Source of the DNA: Chaenocephalus aceratus
Lineage: Eukaryota > Chordata > Actinopteri > Perciformes > Channichthyidae
Assembly (NCBI GenBank): GCA_023974075.1
Contig: CM043800.1
Coordinates: 4,843,319 to 4,907,318, forward strand
DNA: 64,000 nt
Reading direction: 5' to 3'
In this document: in pieces, positions 4,032 to 44,463 of the stretch
Position numbering within the stretch: position 1 is the first letter of the stretch
Layout of the letters: each line of letters opens with the position of its first letter
Notes under the pieces: model-generated
The model's database searches: none
What the model was told of the DNA's origin: nothing
What the model saw: only the letters and a program-made list of their open reading frames with translations
Program-made: the position numbers and the translations under genes

Positions 4032-6372
4032 ATATCGAGCCCGATTGTCGATTTCAAAGGTGTGCTCTAAAATGATATTTATAAATGACTATTATCATTA
4101 TTATAAGCAAGACAATAAATGGCAAAGATATGTAGAAAATAAACGTATTTAAGTTACATTCATAACTAACGTAACGTGGAAGAAAATATGCTTCTAGGAG
4201 ATATGTAGAAAATAAACGTATTTGAGATACGTTCATAACAAACGTAACGTGGGAGTAAATACGTTTCTAGCTAAACGTAATTGAGAATGCAGTTTAGTTC
4301 TGTGGGAACGTAATTTTTAGGAGACAGGGTTGTCCCATCTGCGTCGGGATTTGACGCTCATGGAAGCACGGCATTCGTTTATGTCGGCTGCCCTTAAAGG
4401 CAATGTGAGCGTCCATTCCCATTGGCTAACGGAGAATTGTACACCCGGAAGTAAGTATTTCTCTTACTGTCGATTGATTTTACAGTGATATCTGCACTAC
4501 TCATCGACTAAAAAACACCAGATTATCCTTGCTTTTGTATTTTTCCCCTTCGATTCGGAGAAACAAATATTTTTTCTGAGTAAAGGATGGCAGAAGACAC
4601 TACACTACCCAGAATCCCCAGCTATCGTTTGGACTACACCATGTGCTCTGTTTGACAAACCCCGTTTTTCTCACCATTCATTCCGATGGCTGGCGTCTAT
4701 GTCACGTGATCTTTAAATTTCTCCCTGCAGAAAAAGAAAACATGGCCGAACTTTGTTTTATTCTCGGTGGAAAATGCCTATTTTAAAGTTAGTTTGGCCA
4801 TTAAAATGCGTTTTGATGTCATTTGATGCGAGAAATATGAGTTGTTATTTCAGATTATGTGTGCAGTGGATGTACATGATCTTTAGTTTGCTAGTTATTA
4901 CGAAGATTACTTCAGGAAATCGCGACGTTTTCATTGTTACCAAGGTGGTTGCTAGGGACGCTGCTATCGATATTATTTCTGTTATGTTGTGTAACTGTTT
5001 AATGGTGTTATCTTTATTGCTACCCCCCTTCCCCGTCAATGTATAGTGTTGGTCCACAGCCTAAACATATTAGTTTAACAAAATCCGCATCTAAAGATAG
5101 CCTACGGTATTTTCCCCTGTGCAATTCCAGTCTCACATCTCACAGCACATCGTCATTAACAAATACCGGAAACAGACCGAAAACATTTAAAAAAAATAAT
5201 AATAATACTTTATTCCGAGTGTGCTTGCTTTTCTCTTTGAAAGTCATCACATAACGGCATTGTAATACACGGTTCGGCTGCATTAAATATTACATATCTG
5301 CCGTAGTTCTGTATTTATAGAGCCCTGATGAGAAGACCTCTAGACAAACATGAGGAACTGAAAACGTGACGTGGATCATAAATATATCAGCCATTATACA
5401 ACATCTTACATTTCTTTTCACACAATACGTCTCCTTGCAGTATCAACACTAATTCAGCTCACTTTTACATTTGATCCAATTGGTAGAGCTGTATTTACAC
5501 CATAAAGGTGCACAGCTGATATAAAGGGACACCTGGTGGTTAAAGCATGTTATTGAATTTAATTATTTTTATTATTCGATATTAATACGATCCCTATAAA
5601 GTATATTCATTACTCGTTATTCTCTACTAATAGTTAATTAAAGACTGTATATAATGACTATTTTGCACATCCCTTTCAAGATTTCAAGATTTTCTAAGGT
5701 TTATTGACATATCATATAGGCCTACACAACTGTGGTGTAGTTCTGCACTGAATGAAAAACTTGGGTTGCAGGTTCCTCAATAGTGCATTACAAGACATCT
5801 ATCAATATTTGTGGATACCTCCAGCAATGTTAACTATGTTGAAGCACTTGTTTTAACTGATATTATACATAATGTATTATACTCTTATAAGATCTATGTA
5901 GATATTTCATCTCCGGCCTTGTCAGGTATTGAACAATCAATAAATAAAGAACACAGAATTGTTGAATATAAAACACAGAATTTGTGTGATTATACTAAAT
6001 GATATTCAAATAAACACAACTGCATATTTAACTGTTACACATGCTGATGTAACGCAAATGTTCCAACTTGGGATCAATAAAGTATATCTTATCTTAAGCT
6101 GATCGATGGCTATTGCCATATTTGCAAAATGTGCCTCTGAACCTTGACAAGTGCATGTTTCAGGCTTATCAATTAATGTAATGTAATGTTATCACAGGGG
6201 TCACAAACATAAGACCAGCTGTTAAATAAAGCTCTTCTGACTTTAGCTGGCATGTGTGTATATATATTAATACTGCCCATAATGGGCACAAGCAATTTTC
6301 ACCCATTTATTAATTATATGTTTTAAATGTGAGTGTTTCCTGTCCCCTAAACCTCCAGGGATGTACACATTA

Positions 6373-7351
6373 GGCTTGTTTGAGACAAGCAAGACCTGCG
6401 CAGACCTGCGCAGTTGCGATCAATGTCTTGCTAGTGCGTTGCATGATGGTTAGTCATTTTGTCCGACTTGCTCTGGAGGCTCGCCCACATGAGACTATGA
6501 AATCTCGCGTGACAAAGACGCCCGCAGCCTTGAGAGCGAGGCGAGGCGAGTTGGTGCAGTTGCTCTCCACGAGCTGCGGAAGCGAAATGCTTGATGGGAA
6601 ACGGCTCGCTGGTATCTCGAGCTGAGCACTCATTGGTGGTTTTTACCACGTGCTGCTGATGAAACTCTCCAATTGGCTGGCAAAAGTTTGTTGTTGTTTT
6701 GTGTCAGTTTTACGTCGCTACATCCATTCCCATTTTTCATCATTGTTCCACCATGTTTATCATCATGAAATTAATATCTATATATTTTATACTATACTGC
6801 TTACCGTTTTCATACTTTATATATCTTAGCATATTCATACACACTGTTCATACTGCTCACAGGCTGATATCTAGTGTATTCATACCCCACTGTTTATTCA
6901 TCATTCAATTCATTCTATATGTTATTCTGTAGATTGTGCACATTACTTTCCACTTGCACCTGGTTAGAAGCTAAACTGCATTTCGTTGTCTCAGTACCTG
7001 TAATATGTGCAATAACAATAAAGTTTCTCTTTAAGTTAAACCAAATCATTAAAATAAAATCTATTGTAATGTAATGATTTGGTTTAACCTTATTTATTGA
7101 ATACATCATTTAAAATGGCAAGATTAAATCAAATTACATTCTCCATACAATACATGTGGGATTTCTATTGCATCCACTTCATCTGCAACGAAAAACGCCA
7201 ACGCAATTTCCGCCATTGCAAACCCAGCCAGTCAAGCCGACTCCGAGTCCGAGCTGTCCGACTTAAGACGAGCTTTTTGACACCTCCCCCGGCTGCGATC
7301 GGCTACTCTCGTCTACTTTCGAGGCGAGCCGCAATGTGTCTCAAACAAGCC
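6373..7351. mobile_element. TA-flanked MITE-like DNA transposon, third nesting level
   Basis: The ends GGCTTGTTTGAGACA (6373) and its inverse GTCTCAAACAAGCC (7351) are flanked by TA on both sides (6371-6372 and 7352-7353). The related core at 3100-3130 shows the uninterrupted sequence, which confirms an insertion. No transposase is visible. Blocks of this 979-bp element recur: 6597-6905 resembles 45070-45200, and 6940-7025 resembles the complement of 46660-46760. Superfamily unresolved; TA duplications allow Tc1/mariner or ISL2EU-like groups. Confidence 0.65.
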
Positions 7352-35857: not shown

Positions 35858-36276
35858 ATTATATTTATAATAACACTTTTGCCTTATCAGAATGAAATCC
35901 CATGCTACCTCAATCAAACTTTCACATTATCATAGTGACATCCCATGTATATATTTCCAGCTTTTAAATGGTTTCGTTGTGTATGTTTGTGTTACCTATA
36001 TGAAAAATAATATAATTTTCTAAATCTGTTTTTACGTTTTTTTTGTGATTTTGGGTCCAAAATGTTCATATAGTAGAAGATCACTGCTCTAAACAAAGTC
36101 AAAAATCCTACATCCATACGAAATAAATATAATTAATTATGATGAATACGTTAAGTCTTGTTCATTGTTTTTCACTTTTATTAAATGTTTGATATTTCCG
36201 GTGAAAATGGTGGACTATCGGACATTCAAAATGCAGCATATTTTCACTCTTACACACATATATTCTCCTTTTACTT

Positions 36277-37357
36277 TGAAGGAGTTTTGGACTACTTTTC
36301 TCCGCGCCGTTCCTAATGAGCTTGCTTTAAAAGAAGAAACACTCAAAACAACCAGGACGAGGGTTAAACAAAAATCTGTTTTAATCATAAACGGTAATAA
36401 TGCAATACCATATAATACATTACCATACAAAGCCATATCATATGAGTAATGTCTGGAGTATGCCTACTCCTGGCCTTGTTCACAGGCTGCCCCGACCTCC
36501 CGGTCCGGGCCGCGCGTGGAGAGAGGACGAAGCAACCGGTTGCACGTCCCAAAACCAACAAAGGGGTGGAGTTTCATCTGGGAGATACCAACACGCTGTC
36601 TCACAGGGAATTAGCGCGGGCAGCTTTGAAAGCCACAGGTGTTGGGAAGGCCTGCAGGATGCACCTCATTAAAAATCAGGGGAAATGTCCCTCCCAATTT
36701 GCAAAGCCTATCGATGGTTTAACCCAGAAAAACATTCTCAGAGATAATCTTTACACTCAAAACAGAAATCACCATTAATTCTGCATCTTCCTTCTTCACA
36801 AATAGCTTAAAACACTCTTTTGATAAACAGTCAAATAAAACAACTATTGCGCTGATCTACTTTTAAGAAAAAGGGAACATTGTTTCAGGAATCTATAAAA
36901 AACCTCTCTATATGGTAGAGGAAAAATGTACTTTTTGTTCCTTCAACTATTAACACACAGGAATGTATAAACCCACACATATACTTATTCAAGATATATA
37001 GACTTCTCTGAAACCTGGCCTGCTTGAGATCCTAAACAGAATATATTCTCCCCCACCAAGCACCATGTCCTGCATACCTTCACCTCCCCCACATAGCAAT
37101 AAAACCCAGTTTACTCTTAACAGCCCTTTGTCTATCGCCATTTTAGTCCTCACATTTATGAAAGGATAAAACAGAGAAATCACTATAAAACACAAACACA
37201 GGTATTGTTTGAACAGTATCCACTTAACTGTTACTATTGATAATTACCAGAGAAATTCAAAGGGACCTCTTTTAATATCTGGAAATTGCAACAAGACTTT
37301 CTGCCATTTCAAATGTAACACACTTCTTTGGTACAATATCTCACATCAATTTCCACA
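36277..37357 (-). repeat. LTR, left copy (3' LTR in element orientation)
   Basis: 1081 bp, nearly identical to 43012-44096. It differs by small indels (for example GCAGGATGCACCTCATT here against CAATCAGGC on the right, and a missing GGTCC unit). In minus orientation a GATTAAAAC signal precedes the end by about 100 bases, in the position of a polyadenylation signal. Confidence 0.92.
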
Positions 37358-37358
37358 A

Positions 37359-37369
37359 TTCCCTCTTTT
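37359..37369 (-). promoter_or_regulatory. Polypurine tract
   Basis: AAAAGAGGGAA in minus orientation, directly before the 3' LTR start TGTGGA; the expected plus-strand priming site. Confidence 0.75.
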
Positions 37370-37644
37370 GCACTCTTAAAAAAGAGTGCAACTTACACAA
37401 GGCACTTGAAACATACTTATTGTCACTTCTCTCCACTGTGTTCATCTCTCCACCTTATATTTAGAGCCCTTTAAACATTTGGAAACAGCCCTTCATAGCA
37501 AGTTCTTATGGCAGAATGAGAGGGAGACCAAAAATGTCAAAAAACTGCGTCCTTGTCTGCTGAGTCTCCATACTCGTCCTCTCTGACACAGGCCAACAGT
37601 GTCAGGAGGGGGAGAAGCAGCTTTTCCTTCAATGGTAGAACTGA

Positions 37645-38598
37645 TTAGTCTGACACATAATGAGCGGATGCACGGCACACAACAACACCCACATGATAGT
37701 CTTTGTCCATGGATACAACTCGAATGGTTTCATCAGACCTCTCTGAGGGCAGGATGGGCTGGTTACACGCAGCACATTTAGGCGCCAGGACCCTGTGGTA
37801 GTCTTTCAGACAGTAGATTTTATTCTCAGTGTCCACAGTGAAGGGCACTCCGTCCAGGCTCTCGTTGCAGATGACGCAGCGGAAACAACCGGGGCGGTAC
37901 GACTTCCCCAGGGCCTGCAGGATCATGTTCATGATCAGATGTCCACATGCGTTGCACTTGTCTGCAGACTGCTGGAACCCAGAGTACAGAAAGTCCTCTT
38001 CACAGAAAACCCTTCCTGCGTCATAGTAGAACGCCTTCCCTCTCAGCCTTCAACTACAGGCGCTGCAGGTGAAGCAGCTGTCATGGTAGAGGCTGCCCAT
38101 AGCTTGGCAGGCCTGGCTGGCTCCATACACCGTCTTGTTGTACTTATCACACACTCCTGTTTCAGCGGAGAGTGGAGTCCCCTGTGCCGTCCTGGCTTGC
38201 CGTGTCTTTGTCCCCTCTGATCCGCTGACGGCGGCTTCTGGGCTGCCTGCTAAAGAGATGTCTTCCTTCTCCTCCGGCTTGCTGATGGCGGCTTCCGAGT
38301 CGATGCTGAATAGATGTCCTTTCGATCTTCCTTCTCCGGTCCGATGATGATGCCTCCCGGGACGACTGCTGGATGGATGTCCTCCCGGTCCGATGATGAT
38401 GCCTCCTGGGACGACTGCTGGATGGATGTCCTCGAGGTCCTTCTCCTCCAATCCGCTGATGACAGCATCCGAGTCGACCTCCATGACGAGAGCCAGATCC
38501 GTCCTGATGTCGTCTAGGGTCCTCGCAGGTGTTTTCCCCCGCCGCACACTGGCTCCAGTGGTACCAGTTGTCCCCCTTTCCTTGTAGGCGGACGGCAT
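37645..38598 (-). pseudogene. ajuba/limd1-like: Ajuba/LIMD1-type LIM-domain sequence, intronless, inside the LTR element
   Basis: From 38160 to 37690 the minus strand reads without introns through LIM1 (GVCDKYNKTVYGASQACQAM, YHDSCFTCSACS), LIM2 ([43 protein letters not shown]) and into LIM3 ([30 protein letters not shown]). Zn-ligand Cys/His spacing is kept. These scaffold LIM domains belong to Ajuba/LIMD1/WTIP, which act in Hippo signalling, cell junctions and P-bodies. One TGA (38052-38050) replaces the Arg expected after the CSACS segment. Similarity ends abruptly after DYHV, where the host family continues ECYHCEDC. The upstream reading to 38598 is a low-complexity acidic region with a 51-bp tandem repeat (about 38343-38440), of unclear origin. 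Lack of introns points to acquisition through RNA. Confidence 0.85.
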
Positions 38599-38783
38599 GG
38601 GATGTCCGCTGGGTCACTCGGTCGGGGCCGGAGAGCCTGGGGTTGATCCACTTTGTCCTGCTGACAGTCAGCCTCCTGCGTCTCGGGTCCCCCTTTTGGC
38701 GTCAACAACCTGTGTGGAGAAATCTGATACAAATCCCTCAAGCCTACGCTCCGGGCTCTGGGGCCCTCGGCTGTTTGACCCAC
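38514..38783 (-). other. Open frame of unknown origin upstream of the LIM sequence
   Basis: An 89-codon ORF beginning MGQTAEGPRARS, rich in Pro, Arg and Gln, overlapping the start of the next ORF in another frame. It may be the host gene's disordered N-terminal region, an element leader ORF, or chance. The MGQ start invites comparison with myristoylated Gag, but there is no Ser/Thr at residue 6 and no other gag feature, so I do not claim it. Confidence 0.25.
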
Positions 38784-38849
38784 CAGTGCGTGGCCACTTG
38801 GAGCCTGTTGGTGGGGTGTCTTAAAACAACAGACGTCTGTGCACAGGTT

Positions 38850-41800
38850 TTCTAAATTAATTGTGCAGCTTCAGAATCTTAATACTTGGACTGTGCCAAC
38901 TAAATAAGAACCCCAACATCTTTAGGTAAACTAAATAACATATTTCAATAGCTCTGAATTTATGACAAGCATCTGTGTTTATCTTTAAATGAAATCCCTG
39001 AGATCCCATTAAAAATCTAAATATAATTTGAACTGCTAATGTTTCTGGTAAAGAAACACACTAATGTTATGGATTCAAAAACAACCAAAATCACAATACT
39101 AACAAAGTGAATGGCTTCCTGGTGATACTGCTTTTACCCGTCAGTTCTTAGATATTATCCCGCTGAAAAAATGAATACAGAATTCCAACAAACTGTCATC
39201 AAATGTCTTTCTATTATGAATTTAGATGAAATGTATATCCCCATAATGACCTAAACAATAAAGTCTATGGCTTTTACTTCTTTACCAGGCTAGTTACATG
39301 ATGTTGTCTAAATTAAATTGTTTCATTACATTACTATGTTTTAGCTTTAACTGTAATATGTTCTTTCTACATTTCAAACCTCAGTTACTTTAATACCTGT
39401 TGAAACATTACTCACAGGTCAACTTCTTCAGTATTCCATTCTGGACTTACATCTCTCTGGTAGCCCCTTGGCCACTGATTCTGCATCTGTGTTACCTGCT
39501 ATAACTCAATCAATATTAGAGACATGTCAACATTCATCAAACAGTATGTTATCCCCAAATATGGAGCAGGTCAATTCTAAAACTATAAATCAATGGTCAG
39601 ATTGAACAATGGAGTTGGAGCAGCAGGTTCCTTTCAGTCCCTAAATAAAAAAAATGTACATTGTGAAGTTTACACTCCCCCTTTTTTACACATTAACTCA
39701 TGTGTAAATACAATCCTGTATGGGAAGAAAACCTTCAGGTCATAATGGATTATAAAACAATACCAAACATTTTTCCCAAATGTACATCCATCATTTCCAC
39801 AGTAAACACTTCAGTGAAATTAAGTGTTTCTCTCCATCTTTCAGTCCTAAAAGAAACCGAATCCTCAAATGTCATAGTTTGAGTTTCACATTCTGAAAAC
39901 TGCCACCTCCTGTGGGAGTGAAATATCATCAAGCAGATTAGAAACGGTTTCCCCTTTTGTGCAATGTTAGGAAACCTCTCATTTCACACATTATTATCAC
40001 ACAAAAATAATGTGTTAGTCCAAAACATGCTTGATTAGTCATTGTTTTAAATCATGCAGTTGCACTGATCAGATGCAGACATACACTCACTCACACTGTC
40101 AGGTTGTAAAGTCAGGTTTGGTCAGGTACACCTCAGAGTCAGTCATTGACAGTGCCTTCCCAAGTTACCCTGTCGGTCAGGGTCAAAGGTCAGTTGGTCT
40201 CAGTCTTTTTGGCCATGTGTCGTGCTCTGCAGAGACTCCAATCTTCCAGCACAGGCCAGCATCCTCCGTCTATAAAAATCTGTATATATGGAGCGCCATC
40301 ATTTATTAATTCACAATTACAACTATAATGTTCACGATATCTCCAACCCCTCATTGGAATAGCTGTTTCCCCACATTCCCTGAAAAGTGTTAGCCAAAAA
40401 ATGTCACTTCCTTATTGTACTACTACTGCAGTTCATTAACACCTAATCAATATCAACACGTCTAATAGATGTAATTCAGAAACTTGTGTACATCACTATT
40501 ATCTTGTGTCAAAACATTACTAGGATCTGTAAAGCTCTGCTATGTATTCCATAACTCATTCTATTAATTTATCTTCAATTCTGGTGCACTTAAAGAACAA
40601 TGTTACCCTCTTTAACAGTGCGTGGAACCCTGGGTGTCCTGAACATGTAACAATCACTCTATCAAGGACCTAAAAACAGAAGTAATTTCATCAATGGTTT
40701 GTAGCTGAACTTAGGAATTATCCCTCATGGTAGGTATGTTTTTACTTTTTAACATCTCTAAATGTCAGTTAATTACTAACTAAATGAATGTACATTAGGA
40801 GGTGGTGCCGCTAGTCCTCTAAACTCATAATCTGGTGCTGTGCGCTTCCTGTGAAGCTGCAAGTAAGATTTTAAAAAACCACTGCAGGGTGGGTCGAGTG
40901 ACCCCTCCTCCCTATTGGTCGTCAATAATATGCACCCTTCTAATGGGTGATTGAAGGCCCCACATTATTTCCCATTTCAGCATCAGCCCTCTTTACTCTA
41001 AAATTACTTTTTAAATAGGAATATGTAGAAATGGAACAAATATTCAATCTTCAGAAAAGTTCTTAACCAATGTCTATCTAGTGAACAGCTAACATATTTT
41101 AAAATGTCAGATGTATAAAAATAAGCCTAAATACTCCCTTACCATCAAAGTCCAAATCTAGACACAAGGTGAACAGTTTTGGTAACGGACAATTTAATCT
41201 AAAAACAAAACAAAATTGGACTTGTGTCCTTGTTTTTTGTTCTTCAAAATACATTAGCAAATACCCTGCGAAGTATTCGCAACCTAACTAACCCTCCCTA
41301 GGATATGAAATCCATTAATCCCTTTACTCATAGTTAGTTTATATGTCTAAATTATTATGTGTGACCTAATAATCAGATGTCTTGTTTGTCAACCAAGAAT
41401 ATTATCTTTTCAGTATTCCAGACCATCGCTTAAACAATCAGCCTCCCCTCTCAAACACTAATGTTATTGTTGTACACCACCCTCTGGAAAACTCTTGCAC
41501 AGTTATGCTGTCAAATCATCGCATAATTTCCTCAGAGTCTGAACCGTCTGAGACCAGCCTGTCTCAAGATCTTGTCATAATGTGAACAGTCAGTGATGCG
41601 TTGTCCTCTGCAGCTGTAGTCAATAGGATCAATGAAACTCTTGCACTGGGATGTCCTGAGGGGGAAGGCACCTCTGGATCAATGTGCAGACACACGTTGT
41701 CCTCTGCACAGCAGGAATCCCCAAAAACTGCTGTTCCTCTTCCCACCACTGTTGCCTTGGCAACGAGGTACACGCAAAATGTCAAACCCTCCTCAGAGAT

Positions 41801-42995
41801 GCGTTCTCTGCACAGTTCTTCTGTTTCTGTAGTGAGCAACTCTTCACCAACACACTGATTCAGAGTACAACCCAAAGGTGGCGCACAACTTTCCAGTGCC
41901 GCTGTAATCACAATAAATCAGCAACTGGAGATAAACTCAATTTAAATCTCTCCCCCAAAGGGTTACAAAATAAAACGGCTTCATATACTCAGCAATAGCT
42001 ATTATTACTTTCCCTCAACGATACTGTATGCAATAAATGCCTCTGAAATATAAGTAAACTTCTCAATAAATGACAAATACCACGAAATTCACAATGCAAT
42101 GTTTCTTATTTATTTAAATATCTACGACACATTGATCTATTAATCTTCAATGTTATTCCCTCCTTTTTCAGAGGAAAGCTGTGAAGTGGGGGCTTTCTCG
42201 AACCCACACCTCCAGCCTGCCTCCAGCCTGACTTCGCATGTCTTTATCTGACTTTTCTCCCTTATCTTATTAGTAATTATTCCCAGAAAATTATTCCCCG
42301 TACAGTCTATCGAGCTTTTTTAGATTAATAACCCCACAGAACAAGAGAACGAGATTCCGTTCGTTTCAAAATGGCTTTTTGAAATTTGCGTATCTCTCCC
42401 TTGGATTTATAACATATAATACACTCCAGCTTCCTATGAAGCTGAAGAAGCATTATTCAGATTCGTCCTGGGTGGATATCATTTCTTATGAAACCCACTG
42501 GACTTCCCCGACTGAAATTGCCGACTTGATTTCTCTAAAACCAACGGGGCCTTGCACCATCGTCTTACATTTCTCGTCGCTTCACGTGTAGCATATCCCC
42601 GAGGTTCCTAACCGTTGCTTTATCAATATGAGTAGTCCATCGTTACCTACCTATTATAATATAATTGCATTGCATCATTTTCTGTAGTCCTTTGTTACCT
42701 ACCGATGCAATATAAGCAGTCCTTCGTTACCTACCTATGTTATTTAAATATCTACATTGCACTCTTTACCGTAAATGACACCTGGAAATATCTTTGACAA
42801 CTCTAAAATTTAGCTTGAGCCAATTACAGACCTTCGATAGAAACAGGCGTCCGTTTTACCTTTCAGTTGGATCCATAGTTGTCAAATATTATTCCAGGCA
42901 TCTCCCTTCTTCCGCTGGCTGCCCGTGTTCCTCATAACAAAACACTCATGACGTCACCACGTCGGCACGTCCTTACGTCTCCACGTCATGACGTT
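38850..42995 (-). other. Internal region of the LTR element, no recognised coding
   Basis: About 4.1 kb, AT-rich. The largest minus ORF is 41911-41564 (115 codons, Cys/Glu-rich), which I do not recognise. 42640-42745 has three loose copies of TCCTTCGTTACCTACC. A perfect RFX-type X-box palindrome with a TT spacer (GTTGCCTTGGCAAC) lies at 41751-41764. Retroviral genes expected here are missing. Confidence 0.5.
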
Positions 42996-43008
42996 GTCGG
43001 GGTCGCCA
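42996..43008 (-). promoter_or_regulatory. Primer-binding-like site
   Basis: TGGCGACCCCGAC in minus orientation, three bases inside the LTR. The TGG start and GC-rich body fit a tRNA 3'-end complement. It is one of the two features proving that the two LTRs belong to one unit. Confidence 0.7.
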
Positions 43009-43011
43009 TTT

Positions 43012-44096
43012 TGAAGGAGTTTTGGACTACTTTTCTCCGCGCCGTTCCTAATGAGCTTGCTTTAAAAGAAGAAACACTCAAAACAACCAGGACGAGGGTT
43101 AAACAAAAATCTGTTTTAATCATAAACGGTAATAATGCAATACCATATAATACATTACCATACAAAGCCATATCATATGAGTAATGTCAGGAGTATGCCT
43201 ACTCCTGGCCTTGTTCACAGGCTGCCCCGACCTCCCGGTCCGGTCCGGTCCGCGCGTGGAGAGAGGACGAAGCAACCGGTTGCACGTCCCAAAACCAACA
43301 AAGGGGTGGAGTTTCATCTGGGAGATACCAACACGCTGTCTCACAGGGAATTAGCGCGGGCAGCTTTGAAAGCCACAGGTGTTGGGAAGGCCAATCAGGC
43401 TAAAAATCAGGGGAAATGTCCCTCCCAATTTGCAAAGCCTATCGATGGTTTAACCCAGAAAAACATTCTCAGGGATAATCTTTACACTCAAAACAGAAAT
43501 CACCATTAATTCTGCATCTTCCTTCTTCACAAATAGCTTAAAACACTCTTTTGATAAACAGGTAAACAGTCAAAGAAAACAACTATTGCGCTGATCTACT
43601 TTTAAGAACAAGGGAACATTGTTTCAGGAATCTATAAAAAACCTCTCTATATGGTAGAGGAAAAATGTACTTTTTGTTCCTTCAACTATTAACACACAGG
43701 AATGTATAAACCCACACATATACTTATTCAAGATATATAGACTTCTCTGAAACATGGCCTGCTTGAGATCCTAAACAGAATATATTCTCCCCCACCAAGC
43801 ACCATGTCCTGCATACCTTCACCTCCCCCACATAGCAATAAAACCCAGTTTACTCTTAACAGCCCTTTGTCTATCGCCATTTTAGTCCTCACATTTATGA
43901 AAGGATAAAACAGAGAAATCACTATAAAACACAAACACAGGTATTGTTTGAACAGTATCCACTTAACTGCAACTATTGATAATTACCAGAGAAATTCAAA
44001 GGGACCTCTTTTAATATCTGGAAATTGCAACAAGACTTTCTGCCATTTCAAATGTAACACACTTCTTTGGTACAATATCTCACATCAATGTCCACA
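43012..44096 (-). repeat. LTR, right copy (5' LTR in element orientation)
   Basis: 1085 bp counterpart of the left LTR. On its inner side it abuts the primer-binding-like site; on its outer side it abuts the 44-bp array. A TATA-like TTATATGG lies about 170 bases before the inner end. Confidence 0.92.
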
Positions 44097-44098
44097 AC

Positions 44099-44250
44099 AT
44101 ACATACATTTTCACTCTTACACACATATATTCTCCTTTTACATACATACATTTTCACTCTTACACACATATATTCTCCTTTTACATACATACATTTTCAC
44201 TCTTACACACATATATTCTCCTTTTACATACATACATTTTCACTCTTACA
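44099..44250. repeat. 44-bp tandem array at the LTR element's insertion site
   Basis: Three to four copies of a unit containing CATTTTCACTCTTACACACA and TATATTCTCCTTTTACATAC. One partial copy lies left of the LTR element at 36240-36276, so the element inserted within the array. It degrades into related ATTCATACATTTTG-type sequence to about 44400. Confidence 0.9.
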
Positions 44251-44463
44251 CACGTATATATTTACACTCACACATTCATACATTTTGCTCTCATATTATC
44301 ATATTTCAATGCACACATTCATATATTGTCACTCACACATTCATGCATTTTGTTCTCATATTCATATAATTTAATGCTCATATTTATACATTTTGCTCTC
44401 ATGCGAAATCTACTAAAACAAAGTATGTCATGGTGGTCAGCTGTTAAACACAAAAGTGTATCT

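What the first reader, a model, noticed from the sequence alone, without database searches (positions are those of the whole stretch)
36277..44096. LTR element carrying an intronless Ajuba/LIMD1-type LIM sequence in place of retroviral genes
Seen: two ~1.08-kb direct LTRs, a TGGCGACCCCGAC primer-binding-like site and an AAAAGAGGGAA polypurine tract in matching orientation, no gag-pol motifs, and LIM1-LIM2-start of LIM3 of an Ajuba/LIMD1-type protein in the same orientation. Known: these LIM regions are split by introns in vertebrate genes, and retroviruses can transduce host cDNA. Inference: a non-autonomous retroelement captured a host Hippo/junction scaffold gene.
Basis: partly seen in the sequence, partly recalled or inferred. 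Interest (0 to 1): 0.92.

Follow-up and report, generated by a model that had tools for sequence, protein, structure and literature searches.

The report
Icefish retroelement carrying captured limd1 fragment
In an Antarctic icefish genome a retrovirus-like jumping element once picked up, apparently through splicing, a piece of the host gene limd1 and spread with it to more than two hundred places, so that the versions before and after the capture can still be read side by side.

Summary
Window 36277-44096 is one LTR element on the minus strand (LTR K2P 0.015, PBS, PPT, no Pfam family above cut-off between). It carries 468 nt of limd1 cDNA: exon 2 base 1 to mid exon 7, five introns removed. The element|limd1 fusion occurs at 241 places (control 0). 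In 46 of 50 loci examined both borders agree; the other 4 bear a later deletion, so one capture is inferred. 117 places keep the pre-capture 5' border, where the one copy read through reads CAG|GT, a splice donor facing limd1's exon 2 acceptor. The 3' border is a 7-nt microhomology, CATGTGG. Best reading: read-through transcript, splicing of the element donor to limd1 exon 2, template switch back into the element, then amplification in trans. The protein seems unneeded: 43 of 43 copies lost a predicted zinc ligand, 21 of 43 share a frameshift, and N:S shows no purifying selection. Gene capture by retroelements is known; this is an unusually complete record of one. The autonomous partner was not found.

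The parts
43012..44096 (-). 5' LTR (TG...CA), 1085 nt
   Evidence: one search lists 39 further long LTR matches besides the two of the window, plus one fragment (40 of 1960 candidates scored)
42996..43008 (-). primer-binding-like site TGGCGACCCCGAC, 3 nt inside the 5' LTR
   Evidence: LTR end + PBS 39-mer found 24 times, control 0
41981..42995 (-). 5' leader of the element, no coding signal found
   Evidence: 408 first-look candidates, 40 scored, 47 rows at 82-100%; no Pfam family above cut-off
41978..41981 (.). point at which five other copies hold 0.69-1.23 kb more
38157..41979 (-). internal region without recognised protein family; includes 49-nt tandem repeat at 38336-38440; the frame leading into LIM differs between copies
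38157..38162 (-). AAACAG, last element bases before the capture; in LIM-less copies followed by GT in most listed rows (splice donor)
37689..38156 (-). captured limd1 cDNA, 468 nt: exon 2 (38156-38055), exon 3 (38054-37987), exon 4 (37986-37924), exon 5 (37923-37793), exon 6 (37792-37741), part of exon 7 (37740-37689)
   Evidence: 98.1% to the parental exons
38050..38052 (-). in-frame TGA in the captured LIM1 (parent has CGA)
37689..37695 (-). CATGTGG, 7-nt microhomology between limd1 exon 7 and the LIM-less element: 3' border
37369..37688 (-). element sequence between the captured piece and the PPT, shared with the LIM-less copy read
37358..37368 (-). polypurine tract AAAAGAGGGAA
36277..37357 (-). 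3' LTR (TG...CA), 1081 nt
36273..36276 (.). target-site copy, left flank (ACTT)
44097..44100 (.). target-site copy, right flank (ACAT; 3 of 4 bases match)
44097..44259 (.). host 43-nt tandem array into which the element inserted; one unit also lies just left of 36277

Best explanation
An LTR element (endogenous-retrovirus-like) of the icefish lineage, without recognisable gag-pol, transduced part of the host gene limd1 once. Inferred steps: a transcript started in the element ran through into limd1. The element's own donor (CAG|GT) was spliced to the acceptor of limd1 exon 2, and exons 2-7 were spliced normally. During reverse transcription the polymerase switched between the element's 3' region and the limd1 part at CATGTGG. 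The limd1 piece thereby replaced the element's stretch between the donor and that point. The chimera was then amplified in trans to at least 241 places and probably recombined with related LTR types. The LIM protein was not needed for this spread.
For: Shown. Parental limd1 on C16 has at least eight coding exons; exons 2-7 are bounded by AG and GT. 46 of 50 loci align to the spliced cDNA from exon 2 base 1 (one from base 3) to position 468; the other 4 run from base 4-5 to 446. A LIM-less relative reads ..AAACAG|GTGGAT.. at the 5' border and ..AATAACATGTGG|GTGTTG.. at the 3' border. With up to 3 mismatches, LIM fusions number 241, LIM-less 5' borders 117 and 3' pre-capture borders 31; controls 0. 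21 of 100 listed LIM-less 5' borders have the 3' border downstream on the same strand. LTR pairs are young: K2P 0.0151 here, 0.0037 for C6:33.16 Mb. Target sites match 4 of 4 bases for four of five other two-LTR elements. Passenger status: 43 of 43 copies have a changed predicted zinc ligand; 21 of 43 share a +2 frameshift; distinct changes are N:S 27:5 shared and 31:17 single, neutral expectation about 0.72 N. The copy nearest the parent carries LTR type A.
Against: No element remnant is left in the limd1 stretch read, which covers introns 1-7 but not the region upstream of exon 1, so linkage of element and gene is inferred. The donor CAG|GTGGAT is only a moderate match to the consensus (recalled); at least two listed LIM-less rows lack GT there; no RNA data were available. 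The microhomology is short: limd1 exons 2-7 and the element's 3' region share 30 words of 7 and some of 8-10 bases that were not used. No autonomous partner was found. LIM is less diverged between copies (2.1%) than the stretch upstream (2.4-2.7%) and much less than the 290-nt stretch downstream (4.7%), so weak constraint, or older variation brought into the flanks by recombination, is not excluded. One of five other elements lacks a matching target site (2 of 4).
Confidence: 0.86

Rival explanations
1. The captured LIM protein is useful to the element or the host and is kept by selection, as proposed for KIT-ligand and nectin3 in crocodilian ERVs.
For: 15 of 43 copies are open over the whole captured piece without indel or stop; gene predictors annotated copies as proteins in Champsocephalus gunnari and Pseudochaenichthys georgianus (P0001, P0002); LIM diverges less than both neighbouring stretches.
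Against: 43 of 43 copies have lost at least one predicted zinc ligand; 21 of 43 share a frameshift; N:S is not below neutral; the upstream frame and start codon are not shared between copies.
Confidence: 0.09
2. Capture without splicing: limd1 mRNA was packaged and two template switches joined it to the element.
For: The 3' border has a 7-nt microhomology; such switching is described for LTR retrotransposons (PMC5408686, passages).
Against: The 5' border falls exactly on the first base of exon 2, opposite a CAG|GT in the LIM-less element; normal limd1 mRNA has exon 1 there.
Confidence: 0.1
3. A LINE-type processed pseudogene of limd1 flanked by two unrelated solo LTRs.
For: Intronless and truncated, like a pseudogene.
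Against: Same fusion at 241 places; five other LTR pairs enclose the same internal sequence; flanking repeat unit and 4-mers fit one insertion.
Confidence: 0.01
4. Copies spread by DNA duplication of one chimeric locus, not by retrotransposition.
For: Two single LTRs on C10 have the same flanks in the stretches printed (L004, L005); some fused loci are identical or near-identical.
Against: Zero-mismatch fusions are listed on each of C1 to C17 in a cut list; four of five other two-LTR elements have their own 4-base target-site repeats, and LTR pairs are young.
Confidence: 0.03

Closest known systems
Crocodilian ERVs with captured KIT-ligand (CrocERV29) and nectin3 (CrocERV31), PMC4299795 (passages; section 15 read)
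   Same: Vertebrate ERVs that took up a host mRNA; nectin3 came in at the expense of env; several copies
   Different: There the KIT-ligand capture lost no viral domain and the authors report purifying selection on the captured frames. Here no gag-pol is seen, the captured piece shows no purifying selection by N:S, copies number in the hundreds, and the pre-capture form is present
Acute transforming retroviruses (v-onc transduction; recalled)
   Same: Read-through, splicing into a host exon, and recombination at the 3' side by template switching
   Different: Those are infectious tumour viruses; this is a germline element with a damaged passenger
LTR-mediated retroposition in metazoans (Tan et al. 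2016, seen only as described in PMC5408686 passages; original not held) and maize Bs1 (same passages)
   Same: LTR element with host cDNA; microsimilarity at a border
   Different: Here the 5' border looks made by splicing at an identifiable element donor, and the amplification is large
Walleye epidermal hyperplasia virus with cyclin D homologues (as cited in PMC4299795 section 15)
   Same: Fish retrovirus with host-derived genes
   Different: There the genes are thought to act for the virus

Membership tests
LTR retroelement / endogenous retrovirus (ERV-like) | Two LTRs beginning TG and ending CA, with PBS and PPT in matching orientation | tested here: met
LTR retroelement / endogenous retrovirus (ERV-like) | Short target-site duplication | tested here: met
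   4 bp: C6:33.16, C21:5.98, C3:28.5 and C1:3.45 match 4 of 4; window 3 of 4; C6:2.44 2 of 4. Single LTRs: L003 4 of 4, L004 and L005 3 of 4, L007 2 of 4
LTR retroelement / endogenous retrovirus (ERV-like) | gag-pol genes (autonomous member) | tested here: not met
   No gag, pol or env family in six frames of the window copy or in three element-strand frames of the extra segments of two relatives; hence non-autonomous; retroviral class cannot be assigned
Host-gene transduction by a retroelement | Intronless host sequence with a parental gene with introns in the same genome | tested here: met
Host-gene transduction by a retroelement | Pre-capture element found, borders explained by splice sites and microhomology | tested here: met
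Host-gene transduction by a retroelement | Captured frame maintained by selection (as reported for crocodilian ERVs) | tested here: not met
   N:S and zinc ligands; lower divergence than the flanks points the other way
Authentic limd1/Ajuba-family gene | Introns, own exon 1, full LIM3 | tested here: not met
Host-gene transduction by a retroelement | Chimeric spliced RNA observed | not testable with these tools
   no transcript data

The most novel reading that the evidence does not exclude
Only LIM-dead versions could spread. A retroelement-driven LIMD1 LIM1-LIM2 fragment would compete with real LIMD1 at junctions and in Hippo signalling, so the host purged working versions while copies with broken zinc ligands multiplied. 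In the 16 indel-free copies all 16 have lost a ligand, and 9 of 34 distinct residue changes fall on 16 of 155 codons (expected share 0.097; P 0.004; test chosen after looking). In addition, the capture abolished the element's own splice donor (CAG|GT became CAG|GA), which could raise full-length RNA and help explain why 241 fused places outnumber 117 unfused ones.
Probability: 0.2. Interest if true: 0.85.

Novelty: new member of a known kind. Interest (0 to 1): 0.62.

Why it matters
Retroviral transduction of host genes is best known from tumour viruses or from older, worn fossils. Here one germline genome holds the parental gene, the unfused element with its donor, the 3' microhomology and a series of fused descendants, so the capture model can be checked base by base. 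It also shows that a captured cellular cDNA can reach hundreds of copies with a broken protein, and that such copies enter protein databases as WTIP/LIM proteins of icefishes (P0001, P0002).

Tried and rejected
Rejected: authentic gene; processed pseudogene between solo LTRs; duplication of one locus; LIM on the strand opposite to the LTRs (my first impression, corrected). A conserved N-terminal fusion protein was considered and dropped: upstream open frames lie in different frames in different copies. A 116-aa piece of an open frame in LIM-less relatives found no homologue (protein database, length-limited; PDB only at E 0.32 and 0.43; IMG/VR; NCBIfam). The LTR had no match in phage records. 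The 'LIM' window lies at 37709-38177, shifted by 20-21 nt from the true piece. Columns 230-240 and 63 were left out of the N:S counts (indel misalignment; change judged specific to the parent). An earlier count gave 17 open copies and a provisional reading; the recount is 15. The tree has weak support (4 starred of 39 inner branches), so the 9 LTR-type changes are only indicative. In the cross-match the LIM list was a hand-picked 24 places out, and one of the 17 pairs spans 17.7 kb and may not be one element.
Full report
Genome. The window is G000:C16:4843319-4907318 of a 1.064-Gb assembly in 3032 contigs. Contig lengths C1 43,377,216, C3 48,033,548 and C15 33,456,537 equal chromosome 1, the longest scaffold and the N50 printed for the blackfin icefish Chaenocephalus aceratus (PMC10522714, passages); that paper gives 3,135 scaffolds and 1,065.7 Mb, so the copies held differ slightly. 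The best protein matches to the LIM frame were two predicted proteins of other icefishes, Champsocephalus gunnari (P0001, 91%) and Pseudochaenichthys georgianus (P0002, 82%). By eye both carry the element-specific stretch before LIM1; limd1 proteins of notothenioids and other fishes follow (120 of 405 hits listed). The fusion is therefore shared by at least three icefish genera.

Anatomy. On the minus strand: 5' LTR 44096-43012, 3 nt, PBS 43008-42996, leader, internal region, captured limd1 38156-37689, 320 nt of element, PPT 37368-37358, 3' LTR 37357-36277. LTR divergence is K2P 0.0151; with an assumed 2-4e-9 changes per site and year (recalled, not measured) this is about 2-4 million years, and the C6:33.16 pair (0.0037) about 0.5-0.9 million. 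No Pfam family above its cut-off was found in the rest, nor any in extra segments of two relatives.

Copies. The LTR search scored 40 of 1960 candidates and gave 42 rows: the two window LTRs, 39 other long matches at 89-97%, and one fragment. Five further LTR pairs were read in pieces; 5 of 5 hold limd1 sequence and the same internal region. One of them, C6:33.16, lacks window 38078-38297 and with it the first part of the captured piece. All five have 0.69-1.23 kb that the window copy lacks. The LIM DNA search scored 40 of 754 candidates, all matching at 92-100%. A limd1 protein search gave 85 rows from 84 scored of 2437 candidates: two are limd1 exon 1 and 83 are LIM stretches whose coordinates cross parental exon borders. 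The fusion 38-mer with up to 3 mismatches occurs 241 times, its reversed control 0. Of 24 LTR-end + PBS matches, 17 have a LIM place 3-20 kb downstream on the same strand (one at 17.7 kb), 1 has a LIM-less border and 6 are unresolved, because the lists are cut and I compared with a hand-picked 24 LIM places.

Parent and borders. limd1 on C16 (minus strand, about 20.739-20.756 Mb) has at least eight coding exons. Its spliced exons 2-7 align with 50 of 50 loci at 94.9-99.6%. The 50 loci are 43 distinct places, because 7 were fetched twice. In 46 loci the match runs from base 1 (45 loci) or base 3 (L074) to base 468; in 4 (L052, L053, L076, L077) it runs from base 4-5 to 446, with a later deletion. 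The 5' border is the first base of exon 2; the 3' border is CATGTGG in exon 7. No trace of the element above chance was found in the parental stretches L078, L079, L081 and L082, which cover introns 1-7.

Pre-capture state. Two loci with diverged leaders were followed. At C1:40.42 Mb the element matches the window at 88% up to 38156 and then reads GTGGATATAGC instead of limd1. About 0.5 kb on it reads ATAACATGTGGGTGTTG and continues into PPT and LTR. So the limd1 piece replaced the stretch between CAG|GT and CATGTGG. An acceptor-like TTTATTTCTGTAG lies 484 nt after the donor. The 7-nt match at the border has a chance of about 5e-4 under simple base matching, but longer shared words elsewhere were not used. 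Genome-wide, the unfused 5' border occurs 117 times (100 listed) and the unfused 3' border 31 times, controls 0. Of the 100, 21 have the 3' border downstream: 12 at 266-591 bp, 7 at 2.2-2.45 kb, and one each at 3.4 and 5.1 kb.

What sat there before. In the longer LIM-less form a 350-nt sample (L087) lies in an open frame of 481 aa on the element strand; related rows reach 678 aa. Of 38 rows (some are pieces of one place), 27 lie next to a LIM-less 5' or 3' border. By place and length it could be an env-like gene, but only a weak V-set match (E 0.077) and no homologue was found, so this is a guess. It would make this capture resemble nectin3 replacing env in a crocodilian ERV (PMC4299795, section 15 read).

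Is the protein used? Against the parental exons, distinct changes are N 27, S 5 when shared and N 31, S 17 when single (neutral expectation about 0.72 N; Fisher P 0.07; in the 16 indel-free copies 8:1 and 24:7). All 43 copies have at least one changed predicted zinc ligand (87 of 686 ligand codons against 248 of 5934 others; codons aligned to the parent whatever the frame; ligand positions by the recalled LIM consensus). LIM2 His is Arg in 38 of 43 and kept in 2. Pfam still recognises LIM in three copy-derived fragments, with 89-97 bits against 100 for the reference. A +2 frameshift (CAGG for AT) is carried by 21 of 43 copies of all four LTR groups. Upstream frames differ between copies. Fifteen copies have neither indel nor stop in the piece; the window copy has no indel but one TGA. 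Against the passenger reading, LIM is less diverged between copies (2.1%) than the stretch upstream (2.4-2.7%) and the one downstream (4.7%; 478 of 903 pairs compared). The set is not random: loci were the best matches to the window DNA or to limd1 protein, and the latter should favour intact LIM.

History. The tree puts the parent next to L058 (type A LTR) and then a ladder of copies; LTR types change at least 9 times, with weak support. Read with caution: one founder in a type A element, later recombination with other LTR types.

Print. Searches for ajuba/LIM with endogenous retrovirus, for gene capture with teleost and LTR terms, for icefish transposable elements, for limd1/WTIP with icefish terms and for captured host genes in fish showed no title or abstract start on this element among the papers listed (15 of 36, 25 of 61, 12 of 33, 10 of 276, 10 of 1,446); subscription journals and repeat databases were not searched. 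TE expansion in large icefish genomes and a radiation onset of 10.7 million years are stated in PMC10256766 (abstract and passages).

Noticed in passing
L087 (C9:16948300-16948649) and rows: LIM-less relatives carry an open frame of up to 678 aa at the place where LIM now sits; possibly env-like, weak immunoglobulin V-set resemblance, no homologue found.
   Followed up: partly
41978-41981; L010, L012, L013, L016, L019: Five other copies have 0.69-1.23 kb here that the window copy lacks; no Pfam family in the one tested (L012) or in the corresponding stretch of L084.
   Followed up: partly
38336-38440: 49-nt tandem repeat just upstream of the captured piece; indels in this stretch probably shift the upstream frame between copies.
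   Followed up: partly
36225-36274 and 44097-44259: The element split a host 43-nt tandem array; units lie on both sides.
   Followed up: yes
L018 (C1:3458001-3462000): The C1 copy is interrupted by about 4 kb of unrelated sequence with an open frame that looks THAP-like by eye; not tested.
   Followed up: no
L004, L005 (C10, 57 kb apart); window 6371-7139: Two single LTRs with the same flanks where printed, whose flank also matches window 7139-6371 at 95-96%.
   Followed up: no
P0001, P0002: Databases list copies of this element as LIM/WTIP proteins of two icefishes.
   Followed up: partly
L032-L034, L037, L049, L054-L057: Fused copies with strongly diverged LTRs (only a 110-170-nt match at 75-81%), suggesting exchange of LTRs between element lineages.
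   Followed up: partly
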